From Antedon bifida (taxonomy: Eukaryota > Echinodermata > Crinoidea > Comatulida > Antedonidae): a stretch of 64,000 nucleotides of DNA. Below are positions 21,179 to 62,851 of this stretch, in pieces. The notes beneath the pieces were generated by a model. The model was not told the DNA's origin. It saw only the letters and a list, made by a program, of their open reading frames with translations, and ran no database searches. The first letter of the stretch is position 1; every line of letters begins with the position of its first letter. Where the stretch lies: positions 28,271,409 to 28,335,408 of the forward strand of contig OY727093.1 in assembly GCA_963402885.1 (NCBI GenBank). Reading direction: 5' to 3'. Both the position numbers and the translations under genes were made by a program.

Positions 21179-21326
21179 ATGTCAGAAGAGTACCAAGAAG
21201 AACAGTTAAATTCTTTAATTCTGGAGTTATCTAAAGACAGCACCGACCAGTGCCTAACTAGTCTTCTTGATCCAAGAGGCAATTTCGCTTTTCTTTTACA
21301 AAACTGTCTTGTTCATTGGAAAGATG
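21179..21326 (+). CDS. RING-CH gene, coding exon 1
   Basis: Residues 1-49 plus one base of codon 50. It starts MSEEYQEEQLNSLILELSKD and ends NCLVHWKD; donor GTAAG. An in-frame stop lies 27 bp upstream of the ATG. Confidence 0.82.
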
Positions 21327-30300: not shown

Positions 30301-33300
30301 ATATTATTGACAATTTAGAATTTGAAAATGCCTTGGAGTTATTGTTTTTAGTTTTCATTAGGTTATGTGTCAGAAGTTATATCAACAAAGTCAGATAATA
30401 TCAATGCTGTTATTAAATTATCCTCTTGAATATATTAATATTATAGCAAACAGTATTGTAGAAATTAATAAATGAAAGATCTGATTAGTCCTAATAAAGG
30501 GCGATAGAAAGCAATACCCTAATTAATAGAATTATTGTTGCTTCTTTGAAAATAACCCTTGCTGTTTTCAAAATACTGATATTTTTCTCAAGTAGCCTGA
30601 TTTGATAAACACGTTTACATAAAAATAGAATTAACATACTTCTAAAAAAACAATTATTTTTTTAATATTTTAAGAATACTTTAATTACAGAGTTTTATCC
30701 TCTTTCATTGTACAGAGACATAGTGGGGTACATTGGGCCATTCTTGTGGTTTACATAACAAAATTAACTTGTGGAGTTCTTTGCCTGACACAGTGTGCAT
30801 GACAGAGCCTAAAATGGACCAGCCAAGGAGTGTTTGAACCTTTGCCTGAGTATGGCTGTGGTTTGAGTTGCCATTCCACTGTCTACTGCTCCACCACTTG
30901 ACACATTATAAGGAATACTTTAAAATTACCAGGTTCAGTTTCAGACTATAAGCTGAGAATGATGTGTCAGAACCTTTTTCACATTCTATTCCGGGCCACA
31001 GTCACTTTAGGCCTATACCTGAGTGATTAAACCTGCATTTTAACAGATTGAAGATCCATTTTGTTTCAAGGAAAACTTGTTAAAAATTATTATATTTTTT
31101 GTTTGAATTATAGGTTGGGAAGGTGCTTGCTTAGATAGCTTTTTGAAATACAGTCTATGTGATGCAATAGGAAGGATCAACAATGAATTGGAAGACAAGA
31201 AAGAAGAGAAAACACTATCAACAGATTTGACAGAAATAGAGGTAAGAACGAAAACGACAAAGTTGAGGGAAAAAAATAAGCACATCTCAAATGTCCTTTT
31301 ACATTGCCTTTGATTGTATTGTGACCATTTGTATTTACCGTAGGCGGATTGGGCCCCTCCTAAATTTTGCAAATTATAGTGCAAAAGGTAGGAGTAATTT
31401 CAGTTCGGCACCTAAAATTTGCCATTTTTAGGCCCTGCAACACTGCACATGGCATTGCTATCTAATAGCGCCATTTCTATGTTTGGATGGATTCATTTTT
31501 TCCACACTTAAGTCACAATCCCTACAACCCTCTTCCGATATTTCATTTTTCCTAGTTGGGGTTTCTGAATTTTATTTACTGCTAGACTAATAAATCAGAA
31601 ATGTACTGTATCACATTTCACCCTCACTCACAGGTGTGAAAGGAAATATCATCATAGGTTTAATCATGTATTAACCTCTTGAATTTGTGTAATTTTCTAG
31701 AAAACATTTTTGGCATACAGACTAATAGTGATAAATTTTACACAAAAAAAACTCCCCAATAATAATAGTTATAGAGTTACTTGTAAAACATGACGATAAA
31801 AGTGACTTTTAATGTCAAAAGTTATGTACAAAAAGTATTTGTTTTATCTGTCTAGACGTACTGTACTATTCACAATTATAGGTCTGGAGTAATAGCAACA
31901 ATAAGAGAAAAAGGTGTCCAAACCAAGCTTCTTTTGCAACATGATTTTACAGACCATACAACTTTCATCATAAAGCTAAAATATATATTTTATATTAGTG
32001 TTTATTTCTTTTTTTCAGATGAATCTATAAAGCTTGTCTTTGAACCAGTGGCGTAACGTAGAGGGCGAAGGCCTTTAGCACTCTTAAGTGGCCCTCCACA
32101 GCTGGGTAGTTGCATTGGGCCTGCTCATGCTCTAGAGCTCCTTAGCCTCTGAGGCCCCTTAAGCTCTGGGCCCCTTAAGCTCTTGGGCCCTTTAAGCTCT
32201 GGGTTCCTTAAGCTCTGGGCCCCTTAAAGTTCTGGGGCCACTTAATCTCTGAGCTCCTTAAGCTCTGGGGCCCCTTAAGCTCTGTGTTTTAGTCAATTAT
32301 TAGTGCCTGGGCCCAGCTGTTACGCCACTGCTATCAGAAATAAAGATTGTACAGACTATATATGCTATGAGGTGTTTGTTATTTTTTTCAGGTGAATCTA
32401 TTAGCTCGTCTTGAACAAGTCATAGAGCTTGCTGTTTGTTGTCTAAGTAAGCAAGATCTAAATCCACACGTATTATCAGCTCTTAACCTGATCCTGGATC
32501 CAAAGACAAGGTAAGTAATACCCAATCGATGCCGCTTCTGACGCGGTTGCGCAAATAGCCTCAATACTTTAGAATTAATCACTTAACTCTCAAATCCACA
32601 TGTCAGTGCTTGTCTTCCAATTGCTCTTTTACCCTCAGTTAAGTCTCCGGGGCACAAGCTCAGTCACTACTCTTTCCTTACACATTTTGGTAGTACGATT
32701 GCTAACCATTACACAAAAGCACTCTATTAAATGGGTATGATTTGTATGCATATTTGACTAAAGTAATATTCAAATTAGTGTTTCTGTATTATTATACAGA
32801 GGAAATAGCATATAATAGCTATACTATTTTATGATTGCTCTATAGGCATAATAGTGCATAAATTTTCAATCCAATTTCTACGCAAATATATAATATGAAT
32901 ATTATACACAAAAGATAATTTAATATACATATTAATATTGACAATACACAGTACGTTCATAGGTCACATACAGGATGATAATTGTATAACTATGTATGGA
33001 GTAGCTTTGCGTCATGGAACTAAGTAATTGATTAGATGTTTGCCCTACACTGACATAAGTACTAGTACTTAAATACTAAATATATTGAGAACACTTGCGA
33101 AAAAAATAAGTAATTCTCAGGTTGAACTTACAACCTCCAAATAACTAGCCTATAGCGTTTATACCTCTAAAGCTTTAAACCTCTAGATTGCGCTGGTGGC
33201 TAGGGGTTAGATTTGAGTCCAAGGAAGCAGGGGATGTACAACTATACTTGGTGGAGTACCTTTGCGTCCGGAAGCTAAGTAATTGGTCAGAACTGACCAA

Positions 33301-48300: not shown

Positions 48301-51300
48301 TCATCATCATGTCCATATGGGCAAATCACATTTTTTTGTCACATAAAGTTTGATAGTATAGACAGAGCTTAACATGGTGGCATATGTGTAGGGACATGAA
48401 TTCAACGGCGGGGGCATCTGATTGGCCAATTAAGGCAGCCATATTCGATAGTCCCTCTCCATTTTGAATCACATTTTCAGCTGTGTTGGAGTTTTAAAAA
48501 AACTGTAGCTCCTTCTATCTACAAACAAAAAAAATTCATTAAAAAAGTCCTAATTCAGCTTAAAGTTCATTCACAGATTAGCTGAGCTCATACTGAATTA
48601 GTGCTTTGTGATCGCCATGGCAATAATTTGTTTCTGAATTCTCAAGTGTGTTTTTTCATATGAACAAGAATAATTATGTCAATTACTATGAAATTGTCTT
48701 TGGGAAAAATCTGAACCAATTTTTGATTTGTGTACAGATTAAAATTGATGGCTAAATGATTACCATTGCTCATTATGTGGGAATATGTTATGATGCAAGT
48801 CTACAGTAATTGAGTACTGCTGTGCTATTTTAAAATCTTGCATTAATGCATTGTATAGTGAGATGACGCATGTGTATGATTTACTTGAATTTCCATGTCC
48901 TTTGGAGTAGACGTTAAGTGGTTCCAACAGTGTGTAGAATAAGTCTAAATTACAAATGTGAACAGGGGAAAATGGATTATTGAGAATAAAAAAATTAAGA
49001 AATTTATATCCCAGTGTAATAATTGTTTTCAGTTCTTGTTGGAATTAGAAATATAGACAGCAATATAAATTTATGATTTGGATTGTTTTTGCAATCTGGT
49101 TTGTCATGAGTATAGTTTTTGCTCTAATAGCCTCCCATAGAAATTAGCCTCAATCAGAAGCCATGTATGATATTAGAACAAGAGTTGCTAATTAAACTAA
49201 AAAGGTATCAACTTACCTAATATATTAGTGTCCTATTTAAAGATTATTTAGTTTACAAGTAAAGGTATAATAATTAGATAGTAGTTGAGCCAATAGACTG
49301 ATCTGTGAAGATGATTTAAACTACAGCCATAATGTTGGCACCCGTTCAAAGTTCTCCTTGGCCATAGTTCGAGTGGTTTTGAGTGAGTGAGTGGCCGAGC
49401 GGTTAAGACAGTGGAATCCTAATCCATAGCCATAACATCGGCAAGGGTCTGAGGCTCCATGGTTCTGGCTGTAGAACAAGTCTTCTCGCATAAGTACTAT
49501 AAACCTTAGGTCCAATGTACATAGAAGCACTTTAATGAACCTAGTACATCTTTGAGCCACCGAGTAGGGGTTACCCCGGTGTACTAGTACACACACTGAG
49601 CCAGTGTCGCGAACAGACGGCACCGTAGTTGGCTGCCGGTGACACAATGAGGCAAACAAGGAATTTATAATTAATGACAAATAGAAACCTTTAAAACCTG
49701 GAAAGAAATTGCCCTTTTAAAAAGTGCTTGACAATTAATAGTTTACCCATACAATTATGATCTGTCTACTTACTTATTACGTCACATTGGCGTAATTTAA
49801 GTTTTAAGGAGATTGTTGCTAAGCATTCAATTTTTATGTTTGTGAGTTTATTATTAACTGTTTAATGATTCTAGGTCTTTGATTATAATATGGTCATTTT
49901 TTTCAGATGAGAAGTGTGGATTGTATTTAATGTGCGTTTATTGAGGATGTTTCCTCTCAGTGTTGTAACTAAAGTAGGCTTAAATGTTCTCAGAAAAACC
50001 CATTTCTAAATGTGGCTATGTAATAAAGCTGTCAAGCTTTTCTCTATGGTGTACAAATTGTTAAATTAAGTTCCCAAATTCAATACATTTCCATTCTAAT
50101 TTTGTTTTTTAGTAATCGTGAACTGTACTATCTATTAGATACTGCACTTTAGGGGTGTGTTTCTGCTGCATAACGCAAATTAACCATTTAGCTGTCAATA
50201 AAATAACCGTTGCGGCTAAAAGTTGCCCAGCAATAACCGGTTAAATGGCGTTCTAACACAGAATTGAATGGGTCTTTTTAACCGGTTATTTTGCGCTGCC
50301 TTTTAACCGGTTACCACAAATTTGTCCTGTTTCTGCTCCAAAGAAAATGGAGTTAATTTATTCACGATTTTAACCATTTTTATGCAGCAGAAACAGGCCC
50401 TACATTTCCATTCTAATTTTGTTTCTAATAATAGTGACCTGTACTGTTTATTAGTAAGACTGCACTTTAGTCATAGCAGATATATTCAACCGTTGATTTT
50501 AATGTCAAACATAATTCTATGTCGTTGTTAACTAACATGGTACAAATAATACTATTATTATTTGTTATTCCTTATGATCAAAAGTAATTTGATATATTTT
50601 GTATATATGACAAGAACACCATAACCATTAACCTATTTAATCAATAGTGATAATTAGTATGTCAATAATCTCACTCACTCGTTTCTTTACAGCCTTCGTT
50701 GAAGAAGCCAATCGTTTCTCGGCACAAAAGACATTCAATTTTCTTCTTGCGATTATGCATTAAATAAAATTAAATAATATAATTGGGATTTTTAATATTA
50801 TAATTTTTGTACTACAGTAAAATGTTCCCTTTATTTAAGCTCTGTCTACACTATCAAACTTTATGTGACAAAAAATGTGATGTGTCCATATATGGACATG
50901 ATGATGTGATCACTATCATATTTGGGCATATCACTACCATATTTGGGCACATCACACTTTTTTTGTCAAACTAGTTTGATAGTGTAGAGCTTTTAGATAT
51001 CCATATTCAGTGGACATCTCTGTTTTGAAGGGACATTTCCCAGTAAAATTAGGCTAACCATATATGTTTTAGTGTTACTATTATTTACGATAAAGTAAAT
51101 GAATAATTATTATTATTAATAATACATAATTCTGTCTTTACAGTCTCCATTGGTGAAACAGCTTTTGAGTCATTATTCCAACGCTGGAGGTTTTGTCTCG
51201 TTACAGGAGCGTCTGACCCGATGTAACGAGTTAAATCTGATACAGATAGCTTGTCTCCTTAGGTATAGTATTACTTATCAGTTACTTAAGCTCTGTTTAC

Positions 51301-54300
51301 ACTATCAAACTAGTTTGACAAAAAAAGTGTGGATGTGCCCAAATATGGTAGTGATATACCCAAATATGGTAGTGGTATGACATCATCATGTCCATATATG
51401 CGCACATCACATTTTTTTGTAATATAAAAAGTTTGATATTGTAGACAGAGCATTAAGCATGGTTTCCACTAGAGACGCAACACAAAACATAGACAAAACG
51501 CAAGCAAGTTGGCAGACGACAGTTCGAGTGTTCCAACGCTTGTGAATGGTCAACTCTGTATGTTGCGTCTCTTAGTGGGAACCACGCATTAGAGACCATG
51601 TGAAATTATCATACTGCAGTTTACTGCAGTAACTAGATTTTGTTTTTTTCGATTACCACAACATGATGTTTAGATTTTCAAACGTAAGTAATTACTGTGC
51701 CTTTTAATATGTCTGGTTGTACAAAATGAAATGTATACCATAAAATAAAATGATAAAAAGGGAATAATTTCGCCAGTTCAGCATAGCAAGCTATACAAAA
51801 CAACCTTATTGCTACACATTTCAAAAACTGTGTCAAAAATACAATACAAAACTATGTTTCTGGACTTAAAAATCAGTTTAAATAGCAATAACAATATTGC
51901 TAAATATAATTTTTCCCTGATAAATATTAATATTTCATATTTAATAGTGTATGTATACATGAGACAAAATCATTATGAATATCTATACAGAAAAACATAA
52001 ACAACATAATACATCACTCTTCTTCAACAACACACCTGGTAAATAATATTATTTCTGAAAATGATATGCCTCTGACAGAGATAATAACTAATGTCATTGA
52101 TAGAAGACCAATTGACACAGTTCAGTGACCTCTCTGATGGTAATCAGATCCATATCAAATATCGAAAATTTATATAACCTTTAATCCACATGCATTATTA
52201 TGTCATACATTTATGAGTATGGTATATTATAAGTTGTATTTGAATTGTAGTTTAATAAAAGAGTCTAAAATAATAATGTTAAATAGCATGTCAATATTAA
52301 GTAAACTTGAACAATATTTAGTGTACTAGCACGTGGGGAGGGGGGGGATCACTTGTATATAAACCAAACGGGGGGGGGGGGGGGGGAGGGTGTGCAGCAG
52401 CCACTTCAAGACATGAGGCACTTGTGCTACCTGTTTTACTGAAAAATACCACAGACTTTAACTACCATTTACAAAAATCCAGTGTCGGGTAAACTACCTA
52501 AAATATATTATATTTTTATCTGCTGATGCGAAAACTCTATTCAAAGGTATTTAGCTTGGTCCTGCGATGGGCTTATATAGCCGGCCGGGCTTGTAGCATC
52601 TAGTATGCTAAAATCCCTGCAAAATTTGGTGATAAATCGTGACATTTTGACACGGGTGGGCGAGCCAGGGACTTAAACTACTATTATCACCCTGTCATTT
52701 CCCACACTTGTGCTACCAACTCTCCATATTTTCCCACACTTGTGCTACCAGGCCCTCGAAAATATACCCGTAAATGCGGCACCTCCTCAATACATGTATC
52801 CAACTCAAAATTTCGAAGATAGTTCAGTTTTTAATCCCTCTTGTTAACCATGTACGTTTTCTAATTTTCATGTTCGCCTTGTTGTGGTCATGACAATAAA
52901 GTTTTATCTTATCTTATCTTACTACATTAACAGTACTGTACTCCTAAGCTTTCGTGCTTAAGGCCTAGGCCGTAGCTATAGGACTTCGGAATCATGCCAG
53001 GCCTATTTTTATTCTAATTAACAGTACTGTACTTCTAAGTAGTTTAATTAATTTAAGAACATATCATCTAATGATGGATTATCAATTAAACATCAAAATC
53101 TCATTATCATTCATAATTACCCATTCAATGTCACTATGGGTGATTAGTTTAATATTAGAATTCAATAGATTAGTACTCGACATCAACAATGGTTAATTAA
53201 TTATCACTGAATATGATGTGATTAAGATTAATAGAATAAGTACTAGTGTACTATTGAGGTACTGCACAGTACATTGTACTCAATGTGTTTATTCTTTCTT
53301 CCAAAATGAATAATTCTATATATTTCAAATTATTCTGGATAATTCTCATCCTCAGTTATCATTCAATGTATAATTTCAAGGCAGTAGTGAGAGTTTAAAA
53401 ACAGACGAGGCAAAGATGCTTTAAATATAAAATCTGACGATCTCTGCTGGAGAATTGGGGTGGGTGGTGAAAATTGAAGCACCTCGTCTGCCTCATGCTG
53501 GCTACGGCCCTGAATTTTGTAGCCTGATCGTATGGGAAAATGCTACTGAAAGGCCTAAAAATGCTGCTGGGGTCAAATCCTTTCTTAGTCAATACTCTGA
53601 TTTTACCTATGTCTGAAAACACTGTACTCATAGATTAGGTATTAGGATTTTACTTATTAATGATCAGTGCTACTAACTCAAATACTATGGTATAAAATTT
53701 GAATACTGAGCTAAGCCTCACATGAGACAGATGGTAATGGGTTATTCTCATTCTGTAATTTCCGAAATATGTGAGAAATACATGTTCATGACAATTCTAA
53801 AATTGTATTTGTACCCAAATTTCACACTGCAAGAGCAGTAACAATATACAATACAACTGGTGAGATATTTGTTCGTTTTCTCTGTCTAGTCGAAATATCT
53901 TTTATCTTTCTACCTCAATAGGTAATATTTATTCAATAGAATATTAATGCGCTTTATTTACTCTTTACAGGCCCTTTGGTAACTGTGCAGAGGCTTTGAC
54001 CCCCGACATTGTGCAGTCGTATTTTGTTACGGTTCTAGTAAGTATGAGAAGTCGCAATTATTTGGGAAATTCCGCTTTTGGAAATTTGTCATGGTTTTTA
54101 TTATGCAAATTTGTGTGTTTCCCCATGTCTGTCAACTGTCAAACTTGTTCTAAATTAAATTTAATAGCATACAGTACTCAACAATACATTAATGGTTATA
54201 GACATAGCCAGCAATGCTACGTGTAATATCCTGGTGTGGATGACCTATCAAGATTTATTTTCTACAGAAAATATGGGAGGGGGAAAGGGGAAATGTTGAT

Positions 54301-57300
54301 TGATAGATTAACTTTATTAAAAAAAACAAATACAAAAATACGGAAACAAATACAACATGGAGTGGAGTTGTGGCTTGGTGGTTATGATGCTTGGCTACCA
54401 CTCCAATGGTCCTGGGTTCAAGTCCTGTCACATGTCAGGATAAGGGCAAAATTACAACTCCACTCCCAAAGACTAATATTATGTAGAGCATCTTGTGTAT
54501 ATGGTTGTCTTGTGAACCTCTGAGGGTCCCTAATGATCAGCAATTGCTGGATGGATCACCCTCATTAAATATGGTTAAAAAAACAAACAACAGAGAAAAT
54601 CAGGATAACCCTAAGGGGTCCTAAAACATTTAAAATAAAGTTTCAACCATGCACATACATACAAAAAAAAGCATCTTGTACAAAATATTCTGTTTTAACA
54701 GAGAAACCAAAGGAGTACTAGTGCAACAACTATCCGAGTTTGTCAAAACTTCACTTGTTACTGTTAGTGTTAGGAATTACACAATAACAAATAGTAGATT
54801 TTATTACAGTACCTCCATATAAATGGCACCTTATAAAGACTTAAGTGGGGAGACATCGGATGCTGTAAAGTTTGTATTGCTATGAGGAAACAACTAAAAC
54901 TCTGGTTGAAATAAAAATTCCTCTATTTCCTACTTGTGTAAAGATTTTACTGTTGTACACATTTGGCATGTGTGCACTTAAAAGAGTAATTTTTTTTGAA
55001 AAGTAGGCGGCAGAACTAACCCAGTGTTCATAAAGCCCCCCTCTTGTTAAATGGTTGATAAACGACACTAAAATTCCGCCTACAACATGTCTGTGATTAG
55101 ACTACAATCCATTTAAATGGTGACACTGATGGGGAGGCTTAGGCATTTCCAACAACGCACTGGTTTAGGGACTTTAAGTGGCACCCCAGCCTTTTTTGAC
55201 ATGTTGTAATTCCCTTTTCCCCTTCCGGGCCTTGCTCAGGGGCTCCTTTAAGCTCTGGGTTTAGCCAGTGTACGCTCATAGCCATTCCACTGCCAATAGT
55301 CTGTAAAGGCAATATAGAAATGTGCTTTACTTTTGCAAATGCTTCTGTTAGCAATGCACTATTACAGCACACAACCAGATAACCTTTAGATGTTTGTAGA
55401 CAATTTTAACAGCAGTTTGGTGCTGGTATATCATGACCCGCTGACATTGTATTCTGTAGGTACATGGATAAAAGATAAGACATGTTTACTGTACTTGAAT
55501 AGGTCATGTTGACTTTCAATATTATTGGTAGTAAGGGCTCATAGGTGTGGTTATGTTTATAAAGCTAATGAGGGCGCTGTCATGTTTTTGTCACATTAGA
55601 TTTTCAAAGTTTACATTCCTAATGTCGTTTTTGTATAAAAAGCTGTAGAAAAATTGTTGTAGACAAAATTATTGTCCCAACAATTTTTTTTTTTTCCTGA
55701 GCGTAAGTATCAAAAAAATCAATAGAAATACAAAACACAATTACATCCTCATTTACATACAACCTGTCCTATTTGTATATAAGTACTCTAGGCGTTGTTT
55801 TCTGTTCTGATGATGAGAATAGTTTCTCGAAACATTTTAAGGCAGTTTGCCTATTTATCAAATGCCTCACAACTCAAAAGTTTTAGTGGAATCATACATG
55901 ATTTATCTAACAAAACACAATAGTCAATATACATTGAATTACCAGCCACTAAATTGCACTAAATCATGTTTATTGATGCAGATGTTTATTTCCAGACATT
56001 CTATAGCTGATTTTACAATTCATAATAAACATAAAAGATATGATCATTATTAAATGCATGAGATATGAAAAAGCATTTGTTTATTTCAAATCATGGTTTT
56101 TACATTGTGGGAATAATTGCAGAGTAATTTATATTTCCGGTAAGGAGATATTTTTACAATAAGTTGTCTAAATTGTTTGATTGAGCGGTTAATGTTGTCT
56201 AGACATCACATTTTATACCTGAGTAATTATTGATTAATAACATTATGTATTTCTTTACTCTAGAAGAATGGTCTATGTTATACTTAATAAACATTGTATT
56301 TCTATGACAGTTAAAGGAAAATAGCAAAATCAGCACTGTGGTCATGTTACAAGAGTTGTCAAAACAATATAGATTATATGATAAAAATCCTAGAAAGTAG
56401 GAAACCTACGTGTCTCCGGTGTAGTTAAACACCGGAGACACATAGGTACACCAAAAAACATTTAGCTTCATTTCACCTCACAGAAAGCACACCGTGGTTG
56501 TTGGATTTTCCCATTTACACCAACCAATAAAAACTGCAACACAGGGTTACTTCGCTGTTGCAGTGATAGTGTAAAGAGGGTTTCAGTTTCATGTATGATT
56601 TTCTTTCTTTTTCTTTCAGGATGGATTATGTAAATATGTTGAAGAATTAGATAGTGATGTTTTACTACAGGAAGACACACAAATTCCCTGTATTTTACCA
56701 GATCTTGCCGGTCAAAAACTTATAGAAACGTTACTTGACGTAAGTTAGTTCATGGAGTTAAGTTAATTCATACCCCATCGTTTTTTCTATACTACAGGTG
56801 GGTTTCCGGTTGCACAAAAAGCTAGCAATGCAATAGAACCATTGATTAGATCTTTACGTTCAATGGAACAAACCAAAATTACTTACAGTATGTTGCGTGG
56901 TCACTCAATCAAAAAGTAAATAAGCAGTATATTATATTATTATTGTCAACAGCAAATCAATGACTACCTAATGGTATGTTTCATGATACAAAATAAACCA
57001 ATAGAATGGCAAGCATACTATCTATAGGTGTTTTTATAAAGTTGCAGGGCAAAGGCCCCTGGTTTTAGCACTCCTAAGTGGCCCTGCAATGCTGGGTAGT
57101 TGCATTGTACTGCTCTGGCACCCCTTAAGCCGTGAGGCCCCTGGGTTTAGCCATAGCCGTTAGCCACTGAAAGTTGCTATGCATCATGGAGTCTGCTCCT
57201 AGCTTTCATCTTGAATTTTCACTGTTGGACATATAGATGGCAACAGTGTTAAATTTCCTTTTAGACTTCAACTACAAATTATACCCAAATCATGACATTT

Positions 57301-60300
57301 CCTTTTTCATAAATATTTTTGATATTTAAATGATGAGATGATTTAAAAAAAATACAAAAGCAAGCTTGTAATGATGAATATAATCCAACATAAACCAGTT
57401 AAGCACAGTGGATTGAGGATATTAAGCTGTCTGCAAAAATCAAAATTAGTTTCAGGGTACACGCACCTATTCAGGGTACGCACACCTATTCAGGGTACAC
57501 GCACCTATTCAGGGTACGCACACCTATTCAGGGTACATGCACCTATTCAGGGTACGCACACCTATTCAGGGTACATGCACCTATTCAGGGTACACACACC
57601 TATTCAGGGTATGCGCACCTATTCAGGGTACACACACCTATTCAGGGTACACGCACCTATTCAGGGTACGCGCACCTATTTAGGGTACGCGCACCTATTC
57701 AGGGTACATGCACCTATTCAGGGTACACGCACCTATTCAGGGTACGCGCACCTATTCAGGGTACGCGCACCTATTCAGGGTACGCGCACCTATTCAGGGT
57801 ACGCGCACCTATTCAGGGTATGCGCACCTATTCAGGGTACGCGCACCTATTCAGGGTACGCGCACACCTATTCAGGGTATGTGCACCTATTCAGGGTACA
57901 CACACCTATTCAGGGTACACACACCTATTCAGAGGACGCACACCTATTCAGGGTACGCACACCTATTCAGGGTACACACATCTATTCAGGGTACGCACAC
58001 CTATTCAAGGGAAATCCTGACACTTTCCTGTGAAAAAACATGGGGCAAGGGGTATGTTTTAACATTTAATTTTGAAGTGGACACTTTGTTTTGCCCTGAA
58101 GGTGTCCCCATAATAGACTTATTATGTTTAATTTATATTTCTGGTGACATTGTACCTAGAAGTAGCTTAGTCGAACTCCTAATTGATTGATATAAAACAT
58201 GGTGTTGTACATTAATTATTTCTACTAATATATTTCGGATTCCGGAAACCAGTCGACACACCATTAATTAATTTATTAAAATATTTATGTTGCAAGTAAG
58301 TGTAGACATCATTGATATGTCACTCATTTTATGTCATAGTAATTGTGTCAAGCACGATAATTGTCAATTGTAGTGACAACCAGAACTGGAGTGATAGATG
58401 ACGGGGACATTAACGATGGCTTGTATATTAAACGAAGATGACTCAATTACACTATATTAAAACAACTTTTATCTTGTCTTAGTCACTGAGTGCCATCATC
58501 GTTCAAGTGAAGTCAGAAGATGTGGATGCGTATATCAACGTACAGTGCTGGCAACATCGTATACGAACAAGGTATTATAATGAGGCTCGAAAAAAAAAAC
58601 CCATGAAGAAATCTGTTGATCATGCCGCAATATATACCCACTCACTGAAAATAAAAATATGTGTTTCGTGAATCCTTATAATATTAATATCTGCATACAA
58701 TTTTTAATCTATATTCATTATGAAATCCGATCATCATTATATATTTATTACATAAATATGAATAATTCATATGCCTCAAAAAGAATTAGGAAGAATATAG
58801 AAAAATAGTATACAAATAATGGATGTTTGTGATATAATTCAGGTCAGGCTTTCGAAGAACGTAAATATTGTCCCATTCAACAAATACAAAACATTCATTT
58901 TTTTTGTTATAACACACCTGAGTAGATTGGAGGATTGTGGTCATATGATATTCAATAAAATACTCGAATGAACACACCTTACGTTATCAAGGGTGCAAAT
59001 GCGAGTGAAATTTTGTTATATGCGAGTTGAATTTGTTATAATGCCTGTTCATTCTAGTTACAATGGTATGACACAAGCCTATAAAGTGCGCATTCTATAA
59101 TTATTCTACTTCCCGTCCAAAATGCTTTAGGTCTTGGCCTATAGCATCTCGTTAAAAGTAGGTGTGTTATAAAACAAAAATGAATGTTTTATATTAGTGC
59201 AATGGAACAAATAATTTCATGAAATTTCATTTCAAGTTGAAATATTTATTATTTCTGTTGAATCAATTCTAGGCAGGAGACGACAGTATTAATCTACTGT
59301 ATATGAGATATAATACTATTTTGTAAAAACCAAATAGTGCACAAAAAAGCAATTTCTAATAAGTCCTATCCATTAATTTTCACAAAAATGTCATTGATGG
59401 GAAAAATATGTTTAACCATTTATTGTTATTTGTCGTTGTGCATAGTATAAATGGGCCTAAACAGCTGGCACTCAATATGGCATTTACAACAATAATAATT
59501 TTTTTTTAGGCTAATGATGCTAGTTGATGGTTGCCAGGGTGCTTCTTCTTCCAAACCTCCAGGAATTGCTTTGGCTACAGGAGGAGGAGAATTAAATACA
59601 ATGGACTTGAAACAACAACGGGAGCAGGCCTCCCTCAAATCTAGAAACGTGAACGTTCTGATAAACGTACAGAATAAAGGCATGGAATGTATAGAAGGAC
59701 CGACCGCCGGAAATGATAGTTGCAGTAGTGGAGAGAACTCGCCGGGTCTCGGGCCTAGTATTAGCGGTTATCAGTCTCAGAGTCAAACGACAACGGACAT
59801 TCCCATTCCAATTGAAACACAAGCTAGGGCTACCAAAGTGAGAGGTGAAATGAGTGAAACATCATCTCTCGTATCCACTGTACCGTCGGTACATGTCTCA
59901 CAGTCTGGAAGTGAAAATGGGAATTATTGTCGGGTGTGTTTCGAAGCAGAAACATCACCGAAAAATCCATTGATTAACCCGTGCCGATGCACAGGTTCTG
60001 CTGGTAGTATCCATCGCCAGTGTCTCGTAAAATGGATTCATATCTCTGGGCATCGCCAATGCGAGGTCTGTAACGCACGATTTAACTACGTTCCAGTCGG
60101 GGAAAGGTTGAGAGGAGTTGTCGAGAACTTTCGGAGGAATAAGGTGAGGATGGAATTTGTGAAAGCCACCAGCATCATCGTCATTTCTGCTACCATCACG
60201 ATCATCATTGTCCTCACCACATCATTATAGTCATCATCTGTATTGTCGTCAACCAACATTATCATCACCATCATTATCACTATCATCATGATCAGGTTGC

Positions 60301-61057
60301 ATCAGTTTGTGGTCAGATGTTTGCCCTTCTCTTACAGAATTGTACTTTATGCAAAGTACATACTGAGAACACTTAATGTTATTATTACACTTAGGTAATT
60401 CTCAGGTGGGACTCAAACCCATGACCTCCAGATCACTAGCCTGGCACTCATACCTCTATACCACCATACATTGACTAGAGGCCAGGGTTAGATTCTAACC
60501 CAAGGAAGCAGCGTGTACTGCACCAACATGATGTTCTCAATATGCACTTAAGTACAATTACGAGAGTTGGGCAAACATCTGCTCATTAGCCAATCAGTGA
60601 TCTCCATCTCTGCTATGCACAACTTAAGAATTGTTCATAGACCTACAGTAGCAATGTATTTATATAGACAGATGATCATAATCATACTTTGTTATTTTAT
60701 TTTGCTGCGTCACAAAAGTCACTTCTTGAATTATGTATGTATAATAACATCGGATTACATTTTAGGATTACTTAAAGTCAACACTGTAGTTCGAGAAAAC
60801 GGATTAGTACGAAGATAGTAAATTTATGATAACCTCTTAGTGAACTTCAGGAAAAGCAAAAACATCATTAATTTTTAAAGTTCATTTATAATGTACAATC
60901 CAACCAAATGCTGTAATAGTGAATTAACTAGCTTTATTTTATGTTTTCATTTCTACAGCGATGGCGAAATGCTGCGTTTGCTGTACTCGTGGGACTCGTC
61001 ATTCTTCTGTACCTTATCATTTTCGCCGTCTTTCCTGGTGGTATCATGAACGAATGA
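21179..61057 (+). CDS. RING-CH (MARCH-type) membrane E3 ligase with USP9X/USP24-like N-terminal region, 10 coding exons
   Basis: Exons: 21179-21326, 31114-31241, 32392-32510, 39031-39073, 51144-51262, 53971-54037, 56620-56739, 58483-58571, 59510-60143, 60959-61057. They total 1566 nt, or 521 residues plus stop. Every junction is GT/AG and every phase matches. Residues about 1-290 are helical with no catalytic motif. Order and wording (GWEGACLDSF, LILDPKTS, GGFVSLQERL, CLLRPFGNCAEAL, QHRIRTRLMML) parallel the N-terminal armadillo-like region of USP9X/USP24 as recalled (ALIKPFGQCYEFL, ALIQPLGVCAEYL). Residues 290-410 are Ser/Gly/Gln-rich linker. Residues 418-465 form a C4HC3 RING-CH: C418, C421, C436, C438, H446, C449, C462, C465, plus W453. 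Residues 494-514 are one membrane span. The expected role is transferring ubiquitin from an E2 at a membrane; the N-terminal module may choose the substrate (inference). Known MARCH proteins usually have two or more spans after the RING, so one short span at the extreme C-terminus is unusual. No close family name is known to me. Confidence 0.85.
21353..21483 (+). mobile_element. MITE-A copy 7 (left end lost)
   Basis: Starts within the left arm at TCTAAACTAATTTGACAAAA; ends intact with TTTGATAGTATAGACAGAGC. It begins about 26 bp after the exon 1 donor. Confidence 0.8.
22838..22945 (-). mobile_element. SINE family 1, tail fragment, minus strand
   Basis: CAGTGGCTGTGTGTGAACTA, GTACATAAAACTCCCTCATC, AAGTGCACACAAGC and TTGGACCTAATGT follow the reverse complement of the 15003 copy, with small deletions. 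The tRNA-like head is absent. Confidence 0.55.
24549..24915. mobile_element. 367-bp element with TIRs of about 45 bp
   Basis: The left end ATAGAGTTCTGCGGTGTGAC and GTCACAACGATAGATGGCGC is mirrored on the right by GCGCAATCTACCGTTGTGAC and GTCAGCACCGCAGAACTCTA. A TA duplication at the edges is possible. It has no coding capacity. Each arm carries a TGACGTCA-like word, so a copy can bring CREB-type sites with it. Confidence 0.75.
24960..25825. repeat. Tandem array, about 120-190-bp unit, 5-6 copies
   Basis: The unit contains AAGTATCATTTTAGTCCATC, AGGCGGTTTTAGAGCCTTTT, CAAGCAAAGGACCATCCACA and GTAAGTCACTCATAGACAGG. Unit lengths vary by internal deletion, with later copies shorter. It is non-coding. 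Confidence 0.8.
26100..26535. mobile_element. MITE-C copy 1
   Basis: Ends are inverted: GTCCTGTTTCTGCTGCATAA near 26104 and TATGCAGCAGAAACAGACCC near 26522. Internal CCATTTTAACCGGTTATTGC and TTAGAACGCC are shared, in the opposite order, with the copy at 50155. A further internal AAGCAGAAACAAGAC suggests nesting or a chimeric copy. Confidence 0.65.
27570..27890 (+). promoter_or_regulatory. Possible cryptic promoter with CRE-like sites
   Basis: A full TGACGTCA palindrome (about 27582) and an AACGTCAC word stand above the intron's background GC content. They are followed 300 bp later by a GC-rich start context and a 41-codon ORF. No TATA box or splice donor that joins exon 2 in phase was found. 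Confidence 0.25.
27888..28013 (+). CDS. Small ORF of 41 codons in intron 1, unknown
   Basis: ATG at 27888 in TCATATGGCCGCGG context; begins MAAAYWKEKCEALKELNTKA and ends VLCIN before TAA. The first 30 residues read like ordinary protein (charged, helical, balanced), unlike the repeat-derived frames nearby. A GTACAG after codon 29 could be a donor, but it gives phase 0, which does not fit exon 2. It could be the first exon of a nested gene, a retroposed fragment or chance. I do not recognise it. Confidence 0.25.
   Translation: MAAAYWKEKCEALKELNTKAFVILIEEFMVQTIGRLVLCIN
28090..29060. repeat. Tandem array, about 125-bp unit, 7-8 copies
   Basis: The unit contains AAGAGATCTAGCTGTCTAAT, TGGTTCAGAATTCCTTTGGA, GCTGCCACAGCAAAAGCTCT and GTAGATGCACTAGTCATTGT. 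The copies at 28498-28620 and 28628-28750 are nearly identical; outer copies are more diverged. It is non-coding; the minus-strand open frame at the left end comes from the repeat. Confidence 0.85.
29842..30049 (+). pseudogene. Decayed C-terminal fragment of a non-LTR reverse transcriptase
   Basis: The frame reads FGHIKRQDEMEKRVLEAYIP, GKRRRG, a TGA stop, PRCQWEKIITDVFGS, then after a frame change ASRMTEDKRWFQNTVREAKF. The order GH-(I/V)-x-R, RVLEG-(x)-PGKRxRGRP, W, then DRxxWRxxV is the usual end of LINE ORF2 products. With two breaks it is inactive. Confidence 0.65.
30050..31113. other. End of intron 1, nothing recognised
   Basis: AT-rich sequence leading to the acceptor of exon 2. No repeat end or frame of note was seen. 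Confidence 0.35.
31114..31241 (+). CDS. RING-CH gene, coding exon 2
   Basis: Residues 50-92. GWEGACLDSFLKYSLCDAIG is followed by a charged helix, RINNELEDKKEEK. Acceptor GAATTATAG, donor GTAAGA. In USP9X-type proteins the equivalent position has a Trp-containing segment before the next helix pair (from memory). Confidence 0.85.
32010..32050 (+). pseudogene. Degenerate duplicate of the exon 3 acceptor and first codons
   Basis: CTTTTTTTCAGATGAATCTA, TAAAGCTTGTCTTTGAACCAG (32010-32050) aligns with the true exon 3 start TTTTTTTCAGGTGAATCTAT, TAGCTCGTCTTGAACAAG (32381-32417). It has a stop and a 1-base insertion and ends where a MITE-D element begins. It looks like a dead local duplication. Confidence 0.55.
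32046..32331. mobile_element. MITE-D copy 1 with expanded internal repeat
   Basis: Ends CCAGTGGCGTAACGTAG and CAGCTGTTACGCCACTG are inverted. The interior has about ten copies of a CCCTTAAGCTCTGGG unit (32150-32290), far more than the related copies. CAGTGGCGTAAC ends are typical of hAT-like MITEs, but no 8-bp duplication is visible. Confidence 0.65.
32392..32510 (+). CDS. RING-CH gene, coding exon 3
   Basis: Residues 93-131 plus two bases of codon 132. VNLLARLEQVIELAVCCLSK is followed by LSALNLILDPKT. Acceptor ATTTTTTTCAG, donor GTAAGTA. Matches the USP9X LxLLAMALNPHCKFH-type helix in order and spacing (from memory). Confidence 0.87.
33034..33300. mobile_element. MITE-E copy 1, diverged
   Basis: AGATGTTTGCCCTACACTGA, TTGAGAACACTTGCG, AAGTAATTCTCAGGTTGAAC and CAAGGAAGCAGGGGATGTAC follow the same order as the element at 60314-60581. 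The right end is degraded. Confidence 0.5.
34598..34745. repeat. MITE-F-like repeat
   Basis: GATATATTGTCTCCCTAAAA, GTTGAATATGCCATTTTAAT and GTCACATATAGG recur at 35668-35790 (and inverted, weakly, at about 22250-22330). It is probably a small palindromic element; no exact ends were found. Confidence 0.4.
34768..34849 (+). mobile_element. MITE-A copy 8, internally deleted (82 bp)
   Basis: Both termini are intact (TAAAGCTCTGTCTACACTAT and GATAGTGTAGACAGAGCTCTA), with only a short centre, TGTGCCCATACATGGACAT. It shows the minimal form of the family. Confidence 0.85.
35668..35790. repeat. MITE-F-like repeat, second copy
   Basis: TATATATTGTCCCTTAAAAA and GAATAGGCCATTTTAATGTC, then the inverted CAAAATGGCCTATTCAAAGT. 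The last two make an inverted pair about 60 bp apart. Confidence 0.45.
35888..36000 (+). mobile_element. tRNA-like SINE fragment
   Basis: A-box-like AGTGGAGCTGTTATAACGTT and B-box-like GAGGGTTCAATGCTGACC, followed by CTTCCTCCTGTCTGG. It is a different family from the other SINEs here. No tail or target duplication is clear. Confidence 0.45.
36395..36535. repeat. 18-bp tandem repeat, TATTAAGGGGACACCCCC
   Basis: Six to seven imperfect units. The unit contains the palindrome GGGG(ACA)CCCC. It is adjacent to the block at 36575. Confidence 0.75.
36575..36850. repeat. Three-copy direct repeat of about 95 bp
   Basis: CACAGTAGAACTTYYCYTTT, GACACCTCTATATTAGGGGG and ACACTTTCTTG occur at about 36577, 36668 and 36768. 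The GGGGACAC word links it to the neighbouring 18-bp repeat. Confidence 0.7.
36882..37599. mobile_element. 718-bp DNA transposon relic with 15-bp TIRs and 8-bp target duplication
   Basis: Left end CCCGGGGGGGTCACT (36882-36896), right end AGTGACCCCCCCGGG (37585-37599). The flanks are CAGCCAAC on both sides (36874-36881 and 37600-37607), a perfect 8-bp target-site duplication. An 8-bp duplication fits hAT, P or Merlin-like elements; which one is unknown. No transposase frame was seen. A second, rearranged copy is at 52341-52795. The intact duplication implies a fairly recent insertion. Confidence 0.85.
39031..39073 (+). CDS. RING-CH gene, coding exon 4 (43 bp)
   Basis: Completes codon 132 (AG|C, Ser) and encodes IHSFSKATSSGYKK to residue 146. 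Acceptor TTTATTTTCAG, donor GTAAGTA. It is short, but required by phase: exon 3 ends in phase 2 and exon 5 starts in phase 0. Confidence 0.75.
39579..39735. mobile_element. MITE-B copy 2
   Basis: AATGCTTGGCTCCCACTAGA at the left, inverted as CCTAGTGGGAACCAAGCTTA at the right. The centre CCAATCACAAGCGATGG is mirrored by TCGCTTGTCATTGG. Confidence 0.8.
40370..40520 (+). mobile_element. SINE family 1, head half
   Basis: GAGTGAGTGGCTGAGCGGTT, AAGACAGTGGAAACCTAATT, ACGTAGCCATAACATAACAA and CCATGGGTCTGGTGGTAGAA match the first 130 bp of the 15003 copy. The tail diverges after about 40475. Confidence 0.7.
40726..40838. mobile_element. MITE-D copy 2
   Basis: CAGTGGCGTAACACAGGTTG at the left, inverted as GATGTTACGACACTGG at the right. 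Internal GCACTCCTAAGGGGCCCTC and CTGGGGCCCCTGGGTTTA are shared with the copies at 32046, 55190 and 57030. Confidence 0.65.
41448..44616. mobile_element. Two related elements, one nested in the other, with terminal hairpins
   Basis: Element 1 begins with hairpin AATTCGTC-ACTTT-GACGAATT (41448-41468) followed by TAGGTGATCATTTT, and ends with a hairpin built from that word (44585-44616, stem 13, loop 6). Element 2 begins with hairpin AACTCGTC-ACTTT-GACGAGTT (42969-42989) followed by GGGTTATCCGC. It ends with a 15-bp perfect hairpin built from that word (44508-44540, loop TAC). The two bodies are alike: both carry TATGCCATCCTAT, GTGTAGCATAGRYGAAATTAC and GATGACGTCA blocks about 1.5 kb apart. Element 2 interrupts element 1 near its 3' end. 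Paired short inverted words near both ends plus a 3' hairpin recall Helitron2/Helentron elements. No Rep or helicase frame is present. The class is inferred. Confidence 0.65.
45090..45490. repeat. Three-copy tandem repeat of about 135 bp
   Basis: The unit contains TACTTAAACCATAATTCTAG, GATATGATAGGCTGGTCCCT and CATCGTCTCAACTGCTGTAT. Copies begin near 45090, 45228 and 45370. Confidence 0.7.
46368..46620 (+). mobile_element. MITE-A copy 9, duplicated left end
   Basis: A left terminus TAAAGCTCTGTCTACACTAT at 46368 is followed by about 100 bp of partly unrelated sequence. A second left terminus, AAACTCTGTCTACACTGTCT, lies at about 46484 with a full body and the right end GTGTAGACAAGGCTTTA. It is a tandem or nested copy. 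Confidence 0.75.
46800..47160. repeat. Two-copy direct repeat of about 175 bp, MITE-G related
   Basis: ATTGGCAGATTTCATTGTAA, ACAAATGTGCACCCACATAA, GAGTATTTATTGAATATCAT and AACAATCCTCCAACCAAATG occur at about 46802 and again at about 46980. The last two blocks are inverted at 58925-58970 in the MITE-G element. Confidence 0.75.
47691..47860 (-). mobile_element. LINE 3'-end fragment, minus strand
   Basis: The reverse complement reads AATTGCCCTGTGTGGGACGA, TTAAAGAATTTTGAATTGAA, TTGAAATTGG, which is a short 3' UTR ending in an ATTGA-type repeat. This is typical of CR1/L2-like LINE tails (inferred). It has no coding sequence. Confidence 0.5.
48211..48372 (+). mobile_element. MITE-A copy 10
   Basis: TAAAGCTCTGTCTATACACT to GATAGTATAGACAGAGCTTA, near full length. 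Confidence 0.85.
49383..49620 (+). mobile_element. SINE family 1, near full length
   Basis: GAGTGAGTGGCCGAGCGGTT, CCATAACATCGGCAAGGGTC, CCATGGTTCTGGCTGTAGAA, CTTTAATGAACCTAGTACAT and GGGGTTACCCCGGTGTACTA. Small deletions have removed part of the B-box region. Confidence 0.75.
50155..50400. mobile_element. MITE-C copy 2
   Basis: GTGTTTCTGCTGCATAACGC at the left, TTATGCAGCAGAAACAGGCC at the right. It carries four AACCGGTTA words and an internal CCTGTTTCTGCTCCAAAG. Confidence 0.75.
50835..50995 (-). mobile_element. MITE-A copy 11, inverted orientation
   Basis: TTAAGCTCTGTCTACACTAT with the short arm first (CAAACTTTATGTGACAAAAA), then the two CATATTTGGGCA blocks, ending TTTGATAGTGTAGAGCTTTT with a 6-bp deletion. 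Confidence 0.85.
51144..51262 (+). CDS. RING-CH gene, coding exon 5
   Basis: Residues 147-185 plus two bases of codon 186. SPLVKQLLSHYSNAGGFVSL is followed by QERLTRCNELNLIQIACLL. Acceptor CTTTACAG, donor GTATAG (weak). It corresponds to the LINKFGTLNGFQILHDRF and VQIIAALIKP region of USP9X as recalled. Confidence 0.9.
51286..51455 (+). mobile_element. MITE-A copy 12
   Basis: TTAAGCTCTGTTTACACTAT to TTGATATTGTAGACAGAGCA. It begins 24 bp downstream of the exon 5 donor and is followed directly by a MITE-B. Confidence 0.85.
51455..51591. mobile_element. MITE-B copy 3
   Basis: AAGCATGGTTTCCACTAGAG, then GACGCAACACAAAACATAGA, mirrored by TGTTGCGTCTCTTAGTGGGA and ACCACGCATTA. It adjoins a MITE-A copy. 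Confidence 0.75.
52335..52795. mobile_element. Second copy of the GGGGGGGTCACT element, rearranged, with a long G tract
   Basis: GATCACTTGTATATAAACCA, AGCCACTTCAAGACATGAGG, GCTACCTGTTTTACTGAAAA and, later, TTTGACACGGGTGGGCGAGC and CCCACACTTGTGCTACCAGG match 36882-37599 in order, with a deletion of about 250 bp. The right TIR is absent. A run of about 17 G lies at 52371-52387. Confidence 0.75.
52800..52921 (+). mobile_element. LINE 3' tail ending in a TTATC repeat
   Basis: CATGTACGTTTTCTAATTTT, TGTTGTGGTCATGACAATAA and AGTTTTATCTTATCTTATCT. The AATAAAG signal followed by a short pentanucleotide tail is typical of CR1/L2-type retrotransposons. It adjoins the truncated element to its left. Confidence 0.5.
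53971..54037 (+). CDS. RING-CH gene, coding exon 6
   Basis: Completes R186, then PFGNCAEALTPDIVQSYFVT and VL to residue 208. Acceptor CTCTTTACAG, donor GTAAGT. The (K/Q)P(F/L)GxCxExL motif of USP9X/USP24 is read across the exon 5-6 junction, which supports the join. Confidence 0.9.
54357..54580 (+). mobile_element. tRNA-derived SINE (family 2), + strand
   Basis: A-box-like GTTGTGGCTTGGTGGTTATG, B-box GGGTTCAAGTCCTGTCACAT, and tail GGTCCCTAATGATCAGCAAT, TGCTGGATGGATCACC. It is close to the reverse complement of 6950-7195. Confidence 0.8.
55185..55300. mobile_element. MITE-D relic
   Basis: CCGGGCCTTGCTCAGGGGCT, CCTTTAAGCTCTGGGTTTAG and CCAGTGTACG resemble the family's right half. No clear ends remain. 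Confidence 0.4.
56404..56446. repeat. 18-bp hairpin, CCGGTGT stem
   Basis: CCTACGTGTCTCCGGTGT is followed by a 5-base spacer, AGTTA, and then ACACCGGAGACACATAGG on the other side. One position differs, and it pairs as G-U in RNA. It is isolated, lies about 170 bp before exon 7, and its function is unknown. Confidence 0.65.
56620..56739 (+). CDS. RING-CH gene, coding exon 7
   Basis: Residues 209-248, phase 0 at both ends. DGLCKYVEELDSDVLLQEDT, then QIPCILPDLAGQKLIETLLD. A long pyrimidine tract precedes the acceptor; donor GTAAGT. Skipping it would keep the frame. Confidence 0.87.
57030..57180. mobile_element. MITE-D copy 3
   Basis: GGCAAAGGCCCCTGGTTTTA, GCACTCCTAAGTGGCCCTGC, TGGGTAGTTGCATTG and GAGGCCCCTGGGTTTAGCC parallel the 32046 copy. 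The ends are degraded (GTTAGCCACTG at the right). Confidence 0.55.
57457..58012. repeat. 19-bp minisatellite, CAGGGTACGCGCACCTATT, about 29 units
   Basis: Units vary mainly at RCGYRC (ACACGC, GCGCGC, GCACAC, ATGCAC). One unit at about 57868 has two extra bases, and one has AGAGGACGC. It lies in intron 7. The unit lacks a stop in all three forward frames, so long open frames (57371-58033 and 57708-58190) arise that encode a GTRTYSGYAHLFRVRAPIQ-type 19-residue repeat. These are artefacts unless transcription and translation are shown. Confidence 0.92.
58483..58571 (+). CDS. RING-CH gene, coding exon 8
   Basis: Residues 249-277 plus two bases of codon 278. SLSAIIVQVKSEDVDAYINV, then QCWQHRIRT. 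Acceptor CTTGTCTTAG, donor GTATTA (weak). The next exon completes the Arg codon. Confidence 0.85.
58888..59190. mobile_element. MITE-G, 303 bp with TIRs of about 30 bp
   Basis: AAAACATTCATTTTTTTTGT and TATAACACACCT at the left; AGGTGTGTTATAAAACAAAA and ATGAATGTTTT at the right. Internal GATTGGAGGATTGTGGTCAT and ATGATATTCAATAAAATACT are the inverse of the repeat at 46800-47160. It lies in intron 8. Confidence 0.8.
59510..60143 (+). CDS. RING-CH gene, coding exon 9 (linker and RING-CH finger)
   Basis: Residues 278-489; at 634 bp it is by far the largest exon. It begins RLMMLVDGCQGASSSKP, continues through a disordered Ser/Gly/Gln/Thr-rich stretch, then NYCRVCFEAETSP to CEVCNARFNYVPV with all eight zinc ligands. 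It ends NFRRNK at donor GTGAGG. The open frame continues 87 bp into the intron (see the retention entry). All eight ligands and W453 are in one exon. Confidence 0.95.
60144..60230 (+). CDS. Possible alternative C-terminus by retention of intron 9
   Basis: If the exon 9 donor is not used, the frame adds 28 residues, VRMEFVKATSIIVISATITI followed by IIVLTTSL, and ends at 60230. The tail is hydrophobic enough to be a membrane span, like the spliced version. Its hydrophobicity comes from an imperfect ATC/ATT repeat. Retention is not shown by the sequence alone. Confidence 0.3.
   Translation: MRMEFVKATSIIVISATITIIIVLTTSL
60165..60295. repeat. Imperfect (ATC)n microsatellite
   Basis: CATCATCGTCATTTCTGCTA through CATCACCATCATTATCACTA and ATCATCATGATCA. 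It straddles the readthrough stop and the start of intron 9. Confidence 0.8.
60314..60581. mobile_element. MITE-E copy 2, 268 bp
   Basis: CAGATGTTTGCCCTTCTCTT at the left, inverted as GAGTTGGGCAAACATCTG at the right. The inner arms ATTGTACTTTATGCA and TGCACTTAAGTACAAT also pair. The centre has a tRNA-like GGTGGGACTCAAACCCATGA (minus strand), so a SINE could be enclosed. Confidence 0.75.
60959..61057 (+). CDS. RING-CH gene, coding exon 10 (membrane span and stop)
   Basis: Residues 490-521: RWRN, then AAFAVLVGLVILLYLIIFAV, then FPGGIMNE and TGA at 61055-61057. Acceptor TTTCTACAG. One span of about 21 residues ends eight residues from the stop. The basic RRNKRWR before it suggests the RING and N-terminal region face the cytosol (positive-inside rule, inferred). 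Confidence 0.9.
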   Translation, partial: RWRNAAFAVLVGLVILLYLIIFAVFPGGIMNE

Positions 61058-61760
61058 CCAATAGCGATCAACCTGCACTATTAGTAAAACTTTATCTTCT
61101 TCCAGACCTGTTATTACTCCTGTTTAAAATGCATTTACTTGCCGAATGTAAAAGAAAAAGTAACGGGTATTAGACATTGATTTTGAATGTATGTATTTAA
61201 CTTCTGTTCACACTATGAAACTTCATTAAAGGGTTGTTCAAACACATGTTCAGATACCCAAAAGACACAAAAGCACATTTACATTAATAGTATAGTTTAA
61301 TTAAGCCTGTGTTCACATTATGAAATTGTATTCAGGATTGTTCACACACAACAAAGGTCTTTATTGTTAAGATCGTTGATTTATTACTTATGTCTGTGTA
61401 AATGAATATGATGAGTTTATGAGTTGTTTATTAGTACATGGTCTTTGTAAAACTGTCTTTAGATTCTAGATTAATCTAATCCTAATAGTGTTTGTGCTAG
61501 TCTTAGTTAATTCATACACATTTTAAATCAAATAGCTTAGTTTAATGCCATCACAGTAATGTGTGAACATCCAAATAGGGAGCATTCAGTTTCGACCTAT
61601 GACCTATGCATTAATGTGTTGCTGGTCATCATCTACGAACCACCAAATCTGTTTCAAGGAAAGGAATAGAGTGAGCAAGCTATGCATGCTATGCACGATG
61701 AATTAACAATTAAGTTGTCTCTCGTTGCAAAGCTCCCTAATAACAACCACTAATAAACAA
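61058..61760 (+). other. Probable 3' UTR and flank of the RING-CH gene
   Basis: Non-coding after the stop. An AATAAA is at 61752-61757, about 700 bp downstream; an ATTAAA lies near 61226. Which is used cannot be told. Confidence 0.35.
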
Positions 61761-61984
61761 TATAATGTGGAAACTTAGACCATAATGATCACCATGTCAA
61801 TAGAGTGCGTTGTTTAGATATTTTTTTTTTCCGTTCATAGTGTGAACAAAGTTTACATTTAATTTTCACTTAGCGGCGAGTCATTGGTACGGATGCCTTT
61901 AAACATAATGCTATTGGTGGATACAGTAGAATTAATACTGATAATGGCCGATGATGTACCAATTTGTTATTCGTCCTCCGCTGG

Positions 61985-62125
61985 CTAAGGCTTGTTTCCC
62001 ACTTGGACGTAACACAACGATATAGGCACAACGTATGTGAGTTGACCAATCACAAGCTACAATTCCTCCATTCACAATTGGATACTTATGTTATTCCGCT
62101 GCGTCCAAGTTGGAACCTAGCTTTA
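61985..62125. mobile_element. MITE-B copy 4
   Basis: TAAGGCTTGTTTCCCACTTG and GACGTAACACAACG at the left; CGCTGCGTCCAAGTTGGAAC and CTAGCTTTA at the right. Centre TTGACCAATCACAAGC. Confidence 0.75.
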
Positions 62126-62733
62126 GAAATATAGCTAAGGGTTTAAGATTGTATATCTGTTTATTGCAATGACAACAGTTGAGAACGAACCTTACTACTT
62201 AATTATTTTATCATATTTTAGTAAAATATAATATATACTGCTATTAATAGCAAAAATAATGCACAAAGCAACAAACACATCTATATATATATATATATAA
62301 TTACACATTTTTGCTTCGCATGTATATATATTTTTCGTGTTTCCTAGCATATTTCCTACAATTCCCTCTCATTTATCGTTTTCACTTTGAATTTTTAACT
62401 GTATAGTAGTACATAGCTTTTCACATATTTGTTTAATGGTAGCAGAAAGTAAAGTCCATTGATAGAACTTGGTGCTCAGTAAAAGCTAAGGTTTAAATGT
62501 TGACCCAATGTCAATATTCATTATTTACTAGTGATCTGGATTTATGATTGAAGGAACCACTAAAATACATATCTAGTAATTGTCCAAATTCTAAATTTAA
62601 AACCTTATTTACTTACAATGATAGTAACACGTCACTAGTCATATTAGGCAACATAGACATTGTGGCCGACTAGTTCTGCATACACCTTAAAATGGCGAGA
62701 TAATTAATGTAGTAAAATCTGTCTATGTATAGA

Positions 62734-62840: not shown

Positions 62841-62851
62841 ACTGGACACAT

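What the first reader, a model, noticed from the sequence alone, without database searches (positions are those of the whole stretch)
21179..61057. USP9X/USP24-like N-terminal module fused to a membrane RING-CH ubiquitin ligase
Ten exons with fully consistent phases encode 521 residues. The first part (about 1-290) follows the order of motifs in the N-terminal armadillo-like region of USP9X/USP24, for example CLLRPFGNCAEAL spanning the exon 5-6 junction. It has no protease domain. The second part is a complete C4HC3 RING-CH finger with one C-terminal membrane span. This joins a deubiquitinase-type helical module to a ubiquitin ligase. It might let the ligase recognise the same partners as the USP, and so oppose it.
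Basis: partly seen in the sequence, partly recalled or inferred. Interest (0 to 1): 0.88.

Follow-up and report, generated by a model that had tools for sequence, protein, structure and literature searches.

The report
USP9X front end joined to ubiquitin ligase
In this animal genome, a strongly changed copy of the front part of a ubiquitin-removing enzyme's gene appears to be spliced onto a membrane-anchored ubiquitin-adding enzyme, which could make a ligase aimed at what the other enzyme protects; no RNA evidence was at hand to prove the join.

Summary
The first part is related to USP9X: PDB 7yxx is hit at 3e-6 (whole model) and 3.4e-8 (exons 3, 5-7); hhalign gives probability 97.7, E=1.8e-12. 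New and strongest: the same genome has ordinary USP9X and USP24 genes, and of the module's seven internal introns four coincide in column and phase with USP9X and one with USP24; simple binomial chance about 1e-9. So exons 1-8 are a diverged USP9X-family paralogue of human residues up to about 341, ending at a USP9X donor. No USP9X ARM or protease match lies near. Exons 9-10 encode a complete RING-CH finger and a C-terminal membrane span. Not shown is the exon 8-9 join: phase and frame agree, but exon 9 begins with its own ATGATG, the exon 8 donor is weak, and no RNA or second species was available. I favour one fused tail-anchored ligase (0.62) over two genes (0.27). USP9X and the RING-CH ligase MARCH7 oppose each other on NPHP5 in human cells (PMC5446187), so an antagonist role is plausible, untested.

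The parts
21179..21326 (+). Exon 1 (coding start; residues 1-49 and first base of codon 50); an acceptor-like site just before 21136 and an in-frame stop between it and the ATG suggest a further 5' UTR exon
   Evidence: its phase-1 intron falls on an intron of this genome's USP24 in three of three alignment modes
31114..31241 (+). Exon 2 (to residue 92)
   Evidence: its 3' intron (phase 0) is in the same column as own USP9X; sequence similarity alone weak (rank 10 of 558)
32392..32510 (+). Exon 3 (residues 93-131 plus 2 bases)
   Evidence: rank 1 of 274 candidate exons against USP9X; 3' intron phase 2 in the same column as own USP9X
39031..39073 (+). Exon 4 (43 nt)
   Evidence: the one candidate at the first thresholds (top of 19 at laxer ones); inside the hhalign match; own USP9X has two exons here
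51144..51262 (+). Exon 5
   Evidence: rank 1 of 264; 3' intron phase 2 in the same column as own USP9X; weak donor
53971..54037 (+). Exon 6 (PFGNCAEALTPDIVQSYFVTVL with a split R codon)
   Evidence: rank 1 of 857; 67 nt, same length as the own USP9X exon; 3' intron phase 0 in the same column
56620..56739 (+). Exon 7
   Evidence: rank 2 of 585; begins with D like the own USP9X exon, same phases
58483..58571 (+). Exon 8, last USP9X-type exon, ending at a phase-2 donor at the position of a USP9X donor (weak: AAG|GTATTA)
   Evidence: rank 1 (tied) of 626; 89 nt against 86 nt in own USP9X, same phases, both start S-L
59510..60143 (+). Exon 9: about 138 residues without a recognised domain, then a complete C4HC3 RING-CH finger; ATGATG begins 4 nt after the acceptor
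   Evidence: Pfam RINGv 3.3e-14, PDB 2d8s 6e-10, pattern
60959..61057 (+). Exon 10: C-terminal membrane span and stop codon (tail anchor)
   Evidence: peak mean hydropathy 3.14 over 19 residues at 496-514; phase-0 junction

Best explanation
One gene makes a tail-anchored RING-CH ubiquitin ligase whose cytosolic front end is a strongly diverged paralogue of the N-terminal region of USP9X (up to about human residue 341). It arose when a 5' copy of a USP9X-family gene, with its introns and without the later ARM repeats and protease, came to lie just upstream of a RING-CH gene. The last USP9X-type donor (phase 2) then splices into what was the RING-CH gene's first coding exon (phase-2 acceptor). 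Most likely working: the membrane span fixes the protein to a membrane with front end and RING in the cytosol, the USP9X-type module holds a partner, and the RING-CH recruits an E2 so that the partner is ubiquitinated. Shown here: the gene model, USP9X/USP24-family ancestry, no ARM or protease match nearby, intact RING-CH and membrane span. Inferred: the exon 8-9 join, the topology, partner binding, and opposition to USP9X.
For: All ten exons are phase-consistent. USP9X homology. Five of the seven introns between exons 1 and 8 fall on own USP9X (four) or USP24 (one) introns in exact column and phase, binomial chance about 9e-10; the other two share the phase and lie 3 and 7 columns off. The exon 8 donor stands at the USP9X donor; survival there would be odd if it were unused (inference). 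Of 24 acceptors scoring above 1 (hand-set matrix) at 58600-63950, only exon 9's continues the exon 8 frame beyond 35 codons (240 codons). 0 of 17 PF25010 matches and 0 of 25 USP9X-protease matches in the genome fall within 14 Mb of the window. Module (searched with exons 5-7) and RING half are each found once at this sensitivity. 277 open codons at 29% identity over 137 aligned columns argue against a decayed pseudogene. Precedent: human USP9X stabilises MARCH7 (PMC4897099 passage) and opposes it on NPHP5 (PMC5446187).
Against: No transcript and no second species (searches found no relative of exons 5-10). Exon 9 begins G-CTA-ATG-ATG, which would suit a separate gene with a 5' UTR intron. The exon 8 donor is weak (score -0.1); reading through it gives a stop 33 codons on with AATAAA at 58954. 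A phase match alone has a 1-in-3 chance. The intron test was made after the fact on exons that had been picked by phase; own USP9X has one intron in this stretch that the window gene lacks, and one USP24 intron read there is not shared. The CpG profile gives no clear promoter map.
Confidence: 0.62

Rival explanations
1. Two neighbouring genes on one strand: a truncated USP9X-type gene ending in exon 8 (read through its donor to a stop at about 58.67 kb) or in an unseen exon, and a separate RING-CH gene with a 5' UTR exon whose start codon is the ATGATG of exon 9. Occasional read-through splicing could still make the fused protein.
For: ATGATG 4 nt after the exon 9 acceptor; weak exon 8 donor; possible terminal reading and AATAAA signals at 58650 and 58954 (such signals are common in AT-rich DNA, expectation not computed).
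Against: The exon 8 donor sits at the USP9X donor position; only exon 9 extends its frame substantially; the halves are 938 bp apart, and by eye on open frames of 85 codons or more plus Pfam on two of them the next gene I recognised downstream is a Bcl-2 gene 56 kb beyond the window.
Confidence: 0.27
2. The USP9X-type gene runs on past a nested RING-CH gene to further exons downstream, as a third full USP9X/USP24 paralogue.
For: The exon 8 donor is the normal USP9X donor; one intron here is 12 kb.
Against: tblastn with recalled USP9X and USP24 over 224 kb, to 100 kb beyond the window, found only exon 6 at E up to 1 (it also missed the other module exons, so its sensitivity is limited). An exon-shaped scan for three later USP9X exons gave its best scores inside a Bcl-2 exon (39) and at 118820 (26), which I take as noise; its control was poor. 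No PF25010 or USP9X-type protease match near the window.
Confidence: 0.06
3. A pseudogene or assembly artefact: a decaying partial duplicate next to an ordinary RING-CH gene.
For: Weak splice sites (donors of exons 5 and 8); strong divergence.
Against: No stop or frame break in 277 codons at 29% identity, with splice sites kept at ancestral positions.
Confidence: 0.05

Closest known systems
USP9X / fat facets (N-terminal region, up to about human residue 341)
   Same: Homologous sequence and intron positions and phases
   Different: 29% identity over 137 columns; no PF25010 match and no protease match nearby; the module ends about where PF25010 begins in human USP9X (residue 329)
USP24
   Same: Same family; shares the exon 1-2 intron
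   Different: The other introns I read there differ (one exon between was not resolved); lower score (100 against 135-138)
MARCH (RING-CH) ligases
   Same: Complete C4HC3 RING-CH finger and a membrane span
   Different: One C-terminal span; most MARCH proteins have an N-terminal RING-CH then two spans (PMC4897099 passage). Not clearly orthologous to any of six human MARCH pieces compared (recalled letters). USP9X-type front end
MARCH7 with USP9X (human)
   Same: A RING-CH ligase paired with USP9X and acting oppositely on NPHP5 (PMC5446187: abstract, passages, section 13); RING-CH nearer the C-terminus, as here (PMC4897099 passage)
   Different: There they are separate proteins, and MARCH7 has no membrane span (PMC4897099 passage)

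Membership tests
USP9X/USP24 deubiquitinases | Homologous N-terminal region | tested here: met
   intron positions
USP9X/USP24 deubiquitinases | PF25010 ARM repeats | tested here: not met
   No PF25010 in the 521-residue protein; 17 of 17 genome matches at E up to 1 lie on C10 or C11
USP9X/USP24 deubiquitinases | USP protease domain | tested here: not met
   25 genome matches at E up to 0.01, nearest on C1 14 Mb away; none in 224 kb around the gene
RING-CH (RINGv) E3 ligases | C4HC3 finger | tested here: met
   Pfam 53.2 bits against cut-off 21.6; all eight metal-ligand positions
RING-CH (RINGv) E3 ligases | E2-dependent ubiquitin transfer | not testable with these tools
   needs an in vitro assay
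MARCH subfamily | N-terminal RING-CH followed by two membrane spans (most members) | tested here: not met
   One span, at the C-terminus; layout and exceptions from PMC4897099
Fused USP9X/RING-CH protein | Both halves on one transcript | tested here: inconclusive
   Phase and frame agree; no RNA data

The most novel reading that the evidence does not exclude
A natural counter-enzyme: a ubiquitin ligase that took the partner-binding front end of a deubiquitinase, binds the same partners at a membrane and marks them for removal, so that one family of scaffolds serves both adding and removing ubiquitin.
Probability: 0.25. Interest if true: 0.85.

Novelty: new variant of a known kind. Interest (0 to 1): 0.6.

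Why it matters
It would be a natural case of a deubiquitinase scaffold reused by a ligase, a way to find what the poorly understood N-terminal region of USP9X binds, and a natural model for aiming ligases at DUB substrates. Even if the halves are separate genes, it documents a third, protease-free member of the USP9X/USP24 family in one animal genome.

Tried and rejected
Origin from USP24: rejected as main source, because introns and scores favour USP9X, although one intron is shared only with USP24. Exons from the 19-bp tandem array between exons 7 and 8: many open phase-compatible readings exist there, but they are repeat-derived. CpG profile as a promoter map: high before exon 1 (16-20 kb) and lower before exon 9, but also high at 8-10 and 42-44 kb, so too noisy. 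Bacterial-type promoter scan, tRNA and Rfam searches: nothing of use. Relatives of exons 5-10 in the prokaryote and viral collections: none. Motifs of later USP9X exons by eye-made patterns in the window: none convincing. Exon-shaped scan for later USP9X exons: its control was poor, since in the own USP24 locus the homologous segment came only 4th of 817 and 3rd of 721, so I rely instead. Papers: searches showed no title or abstract start describing such a fusion; I saw listings only, and those (12 of 98; 10 of 40) were partial. Structure prediction was not run, because the spliced protein is not read letter for letter from contiguous DNA, as the tool requires. The species was not identified.

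Full report
Exons 2 and 8 needed relaxed splice-site thresholds.

Is the first part USP9X-like? phmmer against PDB sequences hits USP9X (7yxx) at E=3.4e-8 with exons 3, 5, 6 and 7 joined and at 3e-6 with the whole model. A profile of own USP9X, human USP9X and recalled human USP24 matches residues 88-226 with probability 97.7, E=1.8e-12 and 29% identity over 137 columns. The full module beats 500 of 500 shuffles for each of three targets. Singly, exon 6 beats 500 of 500 for all three targets; exon 5 beats 500 of 500 for recalled USP24 and 499 of 500 for human USP9X, but is not significant against own USP9X; exons 1, 2, 3, 4, 7 and 8 are not significant. Pfam finds only RINGv in the protein; its USP9X ARM model starts at human residue 329, about where this module ends. 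A genome search with human USP9X found the C10 and C11 genes and not the window, a measure of the divergence.

The strongest evidence is the introns. The genome has a USP9X gene on C10 and a USP24 gene on C11, with N-terminal and protease exons. I read their N-terminal exon boundaries (one USP24 exon was not resolved) and aligned the proteins without using introns. Introns 2/3, 3/4, 5/6 and 6/7 of the window gene fall in the same column and phase as USP9X introns. Intron 1/2 falls on a USP24 intron in three of three alignment modes. Introns 4/5 and 7/8 share phase and lie 3 and 7 columns off. Own USP9X has one further intron here that the window gene lacks. Four of seven exact matches with USP9X have a binomial chance of 4.6e-8, and five of seven including USP24 about 9e-10; this is a simple test made after the fact on exons picked by phase. 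The exon 8 donor, outside that test, also stands at a USP9X donor of the same phase, in an exon of 89 against 86 nt. A scan of open AG..GT segments of the window puts exons 3, 5 and 6 clearly first, exon 8 first in a tie, exon 7 second and exon 2 tenth.

What follows? The ARM family has 17 matches, all on C10 or C11, and the USP9X protease query 25 matches, the nearest 14 Mb away on C1. tblastn over 224 kb around the gene finds only exon 6 at E up to 1, which also shows its limited reach for diverged exons. After exon 8, of 24 acceptors scoring above 1 at 58600-63950, only exon 9 continues the frame beyond 35 codons. Exon 9 carries about 138 residues without a recognised domain and a complete RING-CH; exon 10 carries a single membrane span close to the C-terminus. 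The RING is not clearly orthologous to any of six human MARCH pieces compared (recalled letters) and is one of eight RINGv matches in the genome, a lower bound.

Against a fusion: exon 9 starts with ATGATG right after its acceptor, the exon 8 donor is weak, read-through of it stops after 33 codons, and there is no RNA and no second species. I therefore give the fused gene 0.62 and two genes 0.27.

Mechanism: a tail-anchored ligase with a USP9X-derived front end would be expected to hold a USP9X-type partner at a membrane and ubiquitinate it. In human cells USP9X binds and stabilises the RING-CH ligase MARCH7 (PMC4897099, passages; listed also in PMC4427618, passage) and opposes it on NPHP5, which binds both (PMC5446187: abstract, passages, section 13). 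In the passages I read the binding site was mapped on NPHP5, not on USP9X, so that the module seen here binds partners remains an inference.

Noticed in passing
57451-58007: 19-bp tandem array (29 copies) in the intron between exons 7 and 8; its period keeps long frames open, giving spurious open frames of up to 228 codons.
   Followed up: partly
18309-19374: 81-bp tandem array (13 copies) upstream of exon 1, inside a stretch of high CpG content that runs on to about 20.5 kb.
   Followed up: no
G000:C10 about 20881210-20882227 (L043:3210-4227): In the host's USP9X gene, a tandem array of units of roughly 81 bp, each repeating the last codons of an exon (TLTLEDLDNIWAAQ) with flanking sequence; 12 rows of tblastn hits.
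   Followed up: no
L009:5856-6215 (window coordinate 119856-120215): Exon of a Bcl-2 family gene (Pfam 6e-24), the next gene I recognised downstream.
   Followed up: partly
L014-L019 (60 kb upstream): Several open frames that look like immunoglobulin-type membrane proteins and mobile elements; judged by eye only.
   Followed up: no
60144-60230: Intron 9 begins with an open frame that would give a different hydrophobic C-terminus if retained; a simple repeat follows at 60252-60294.
   Followed up: no
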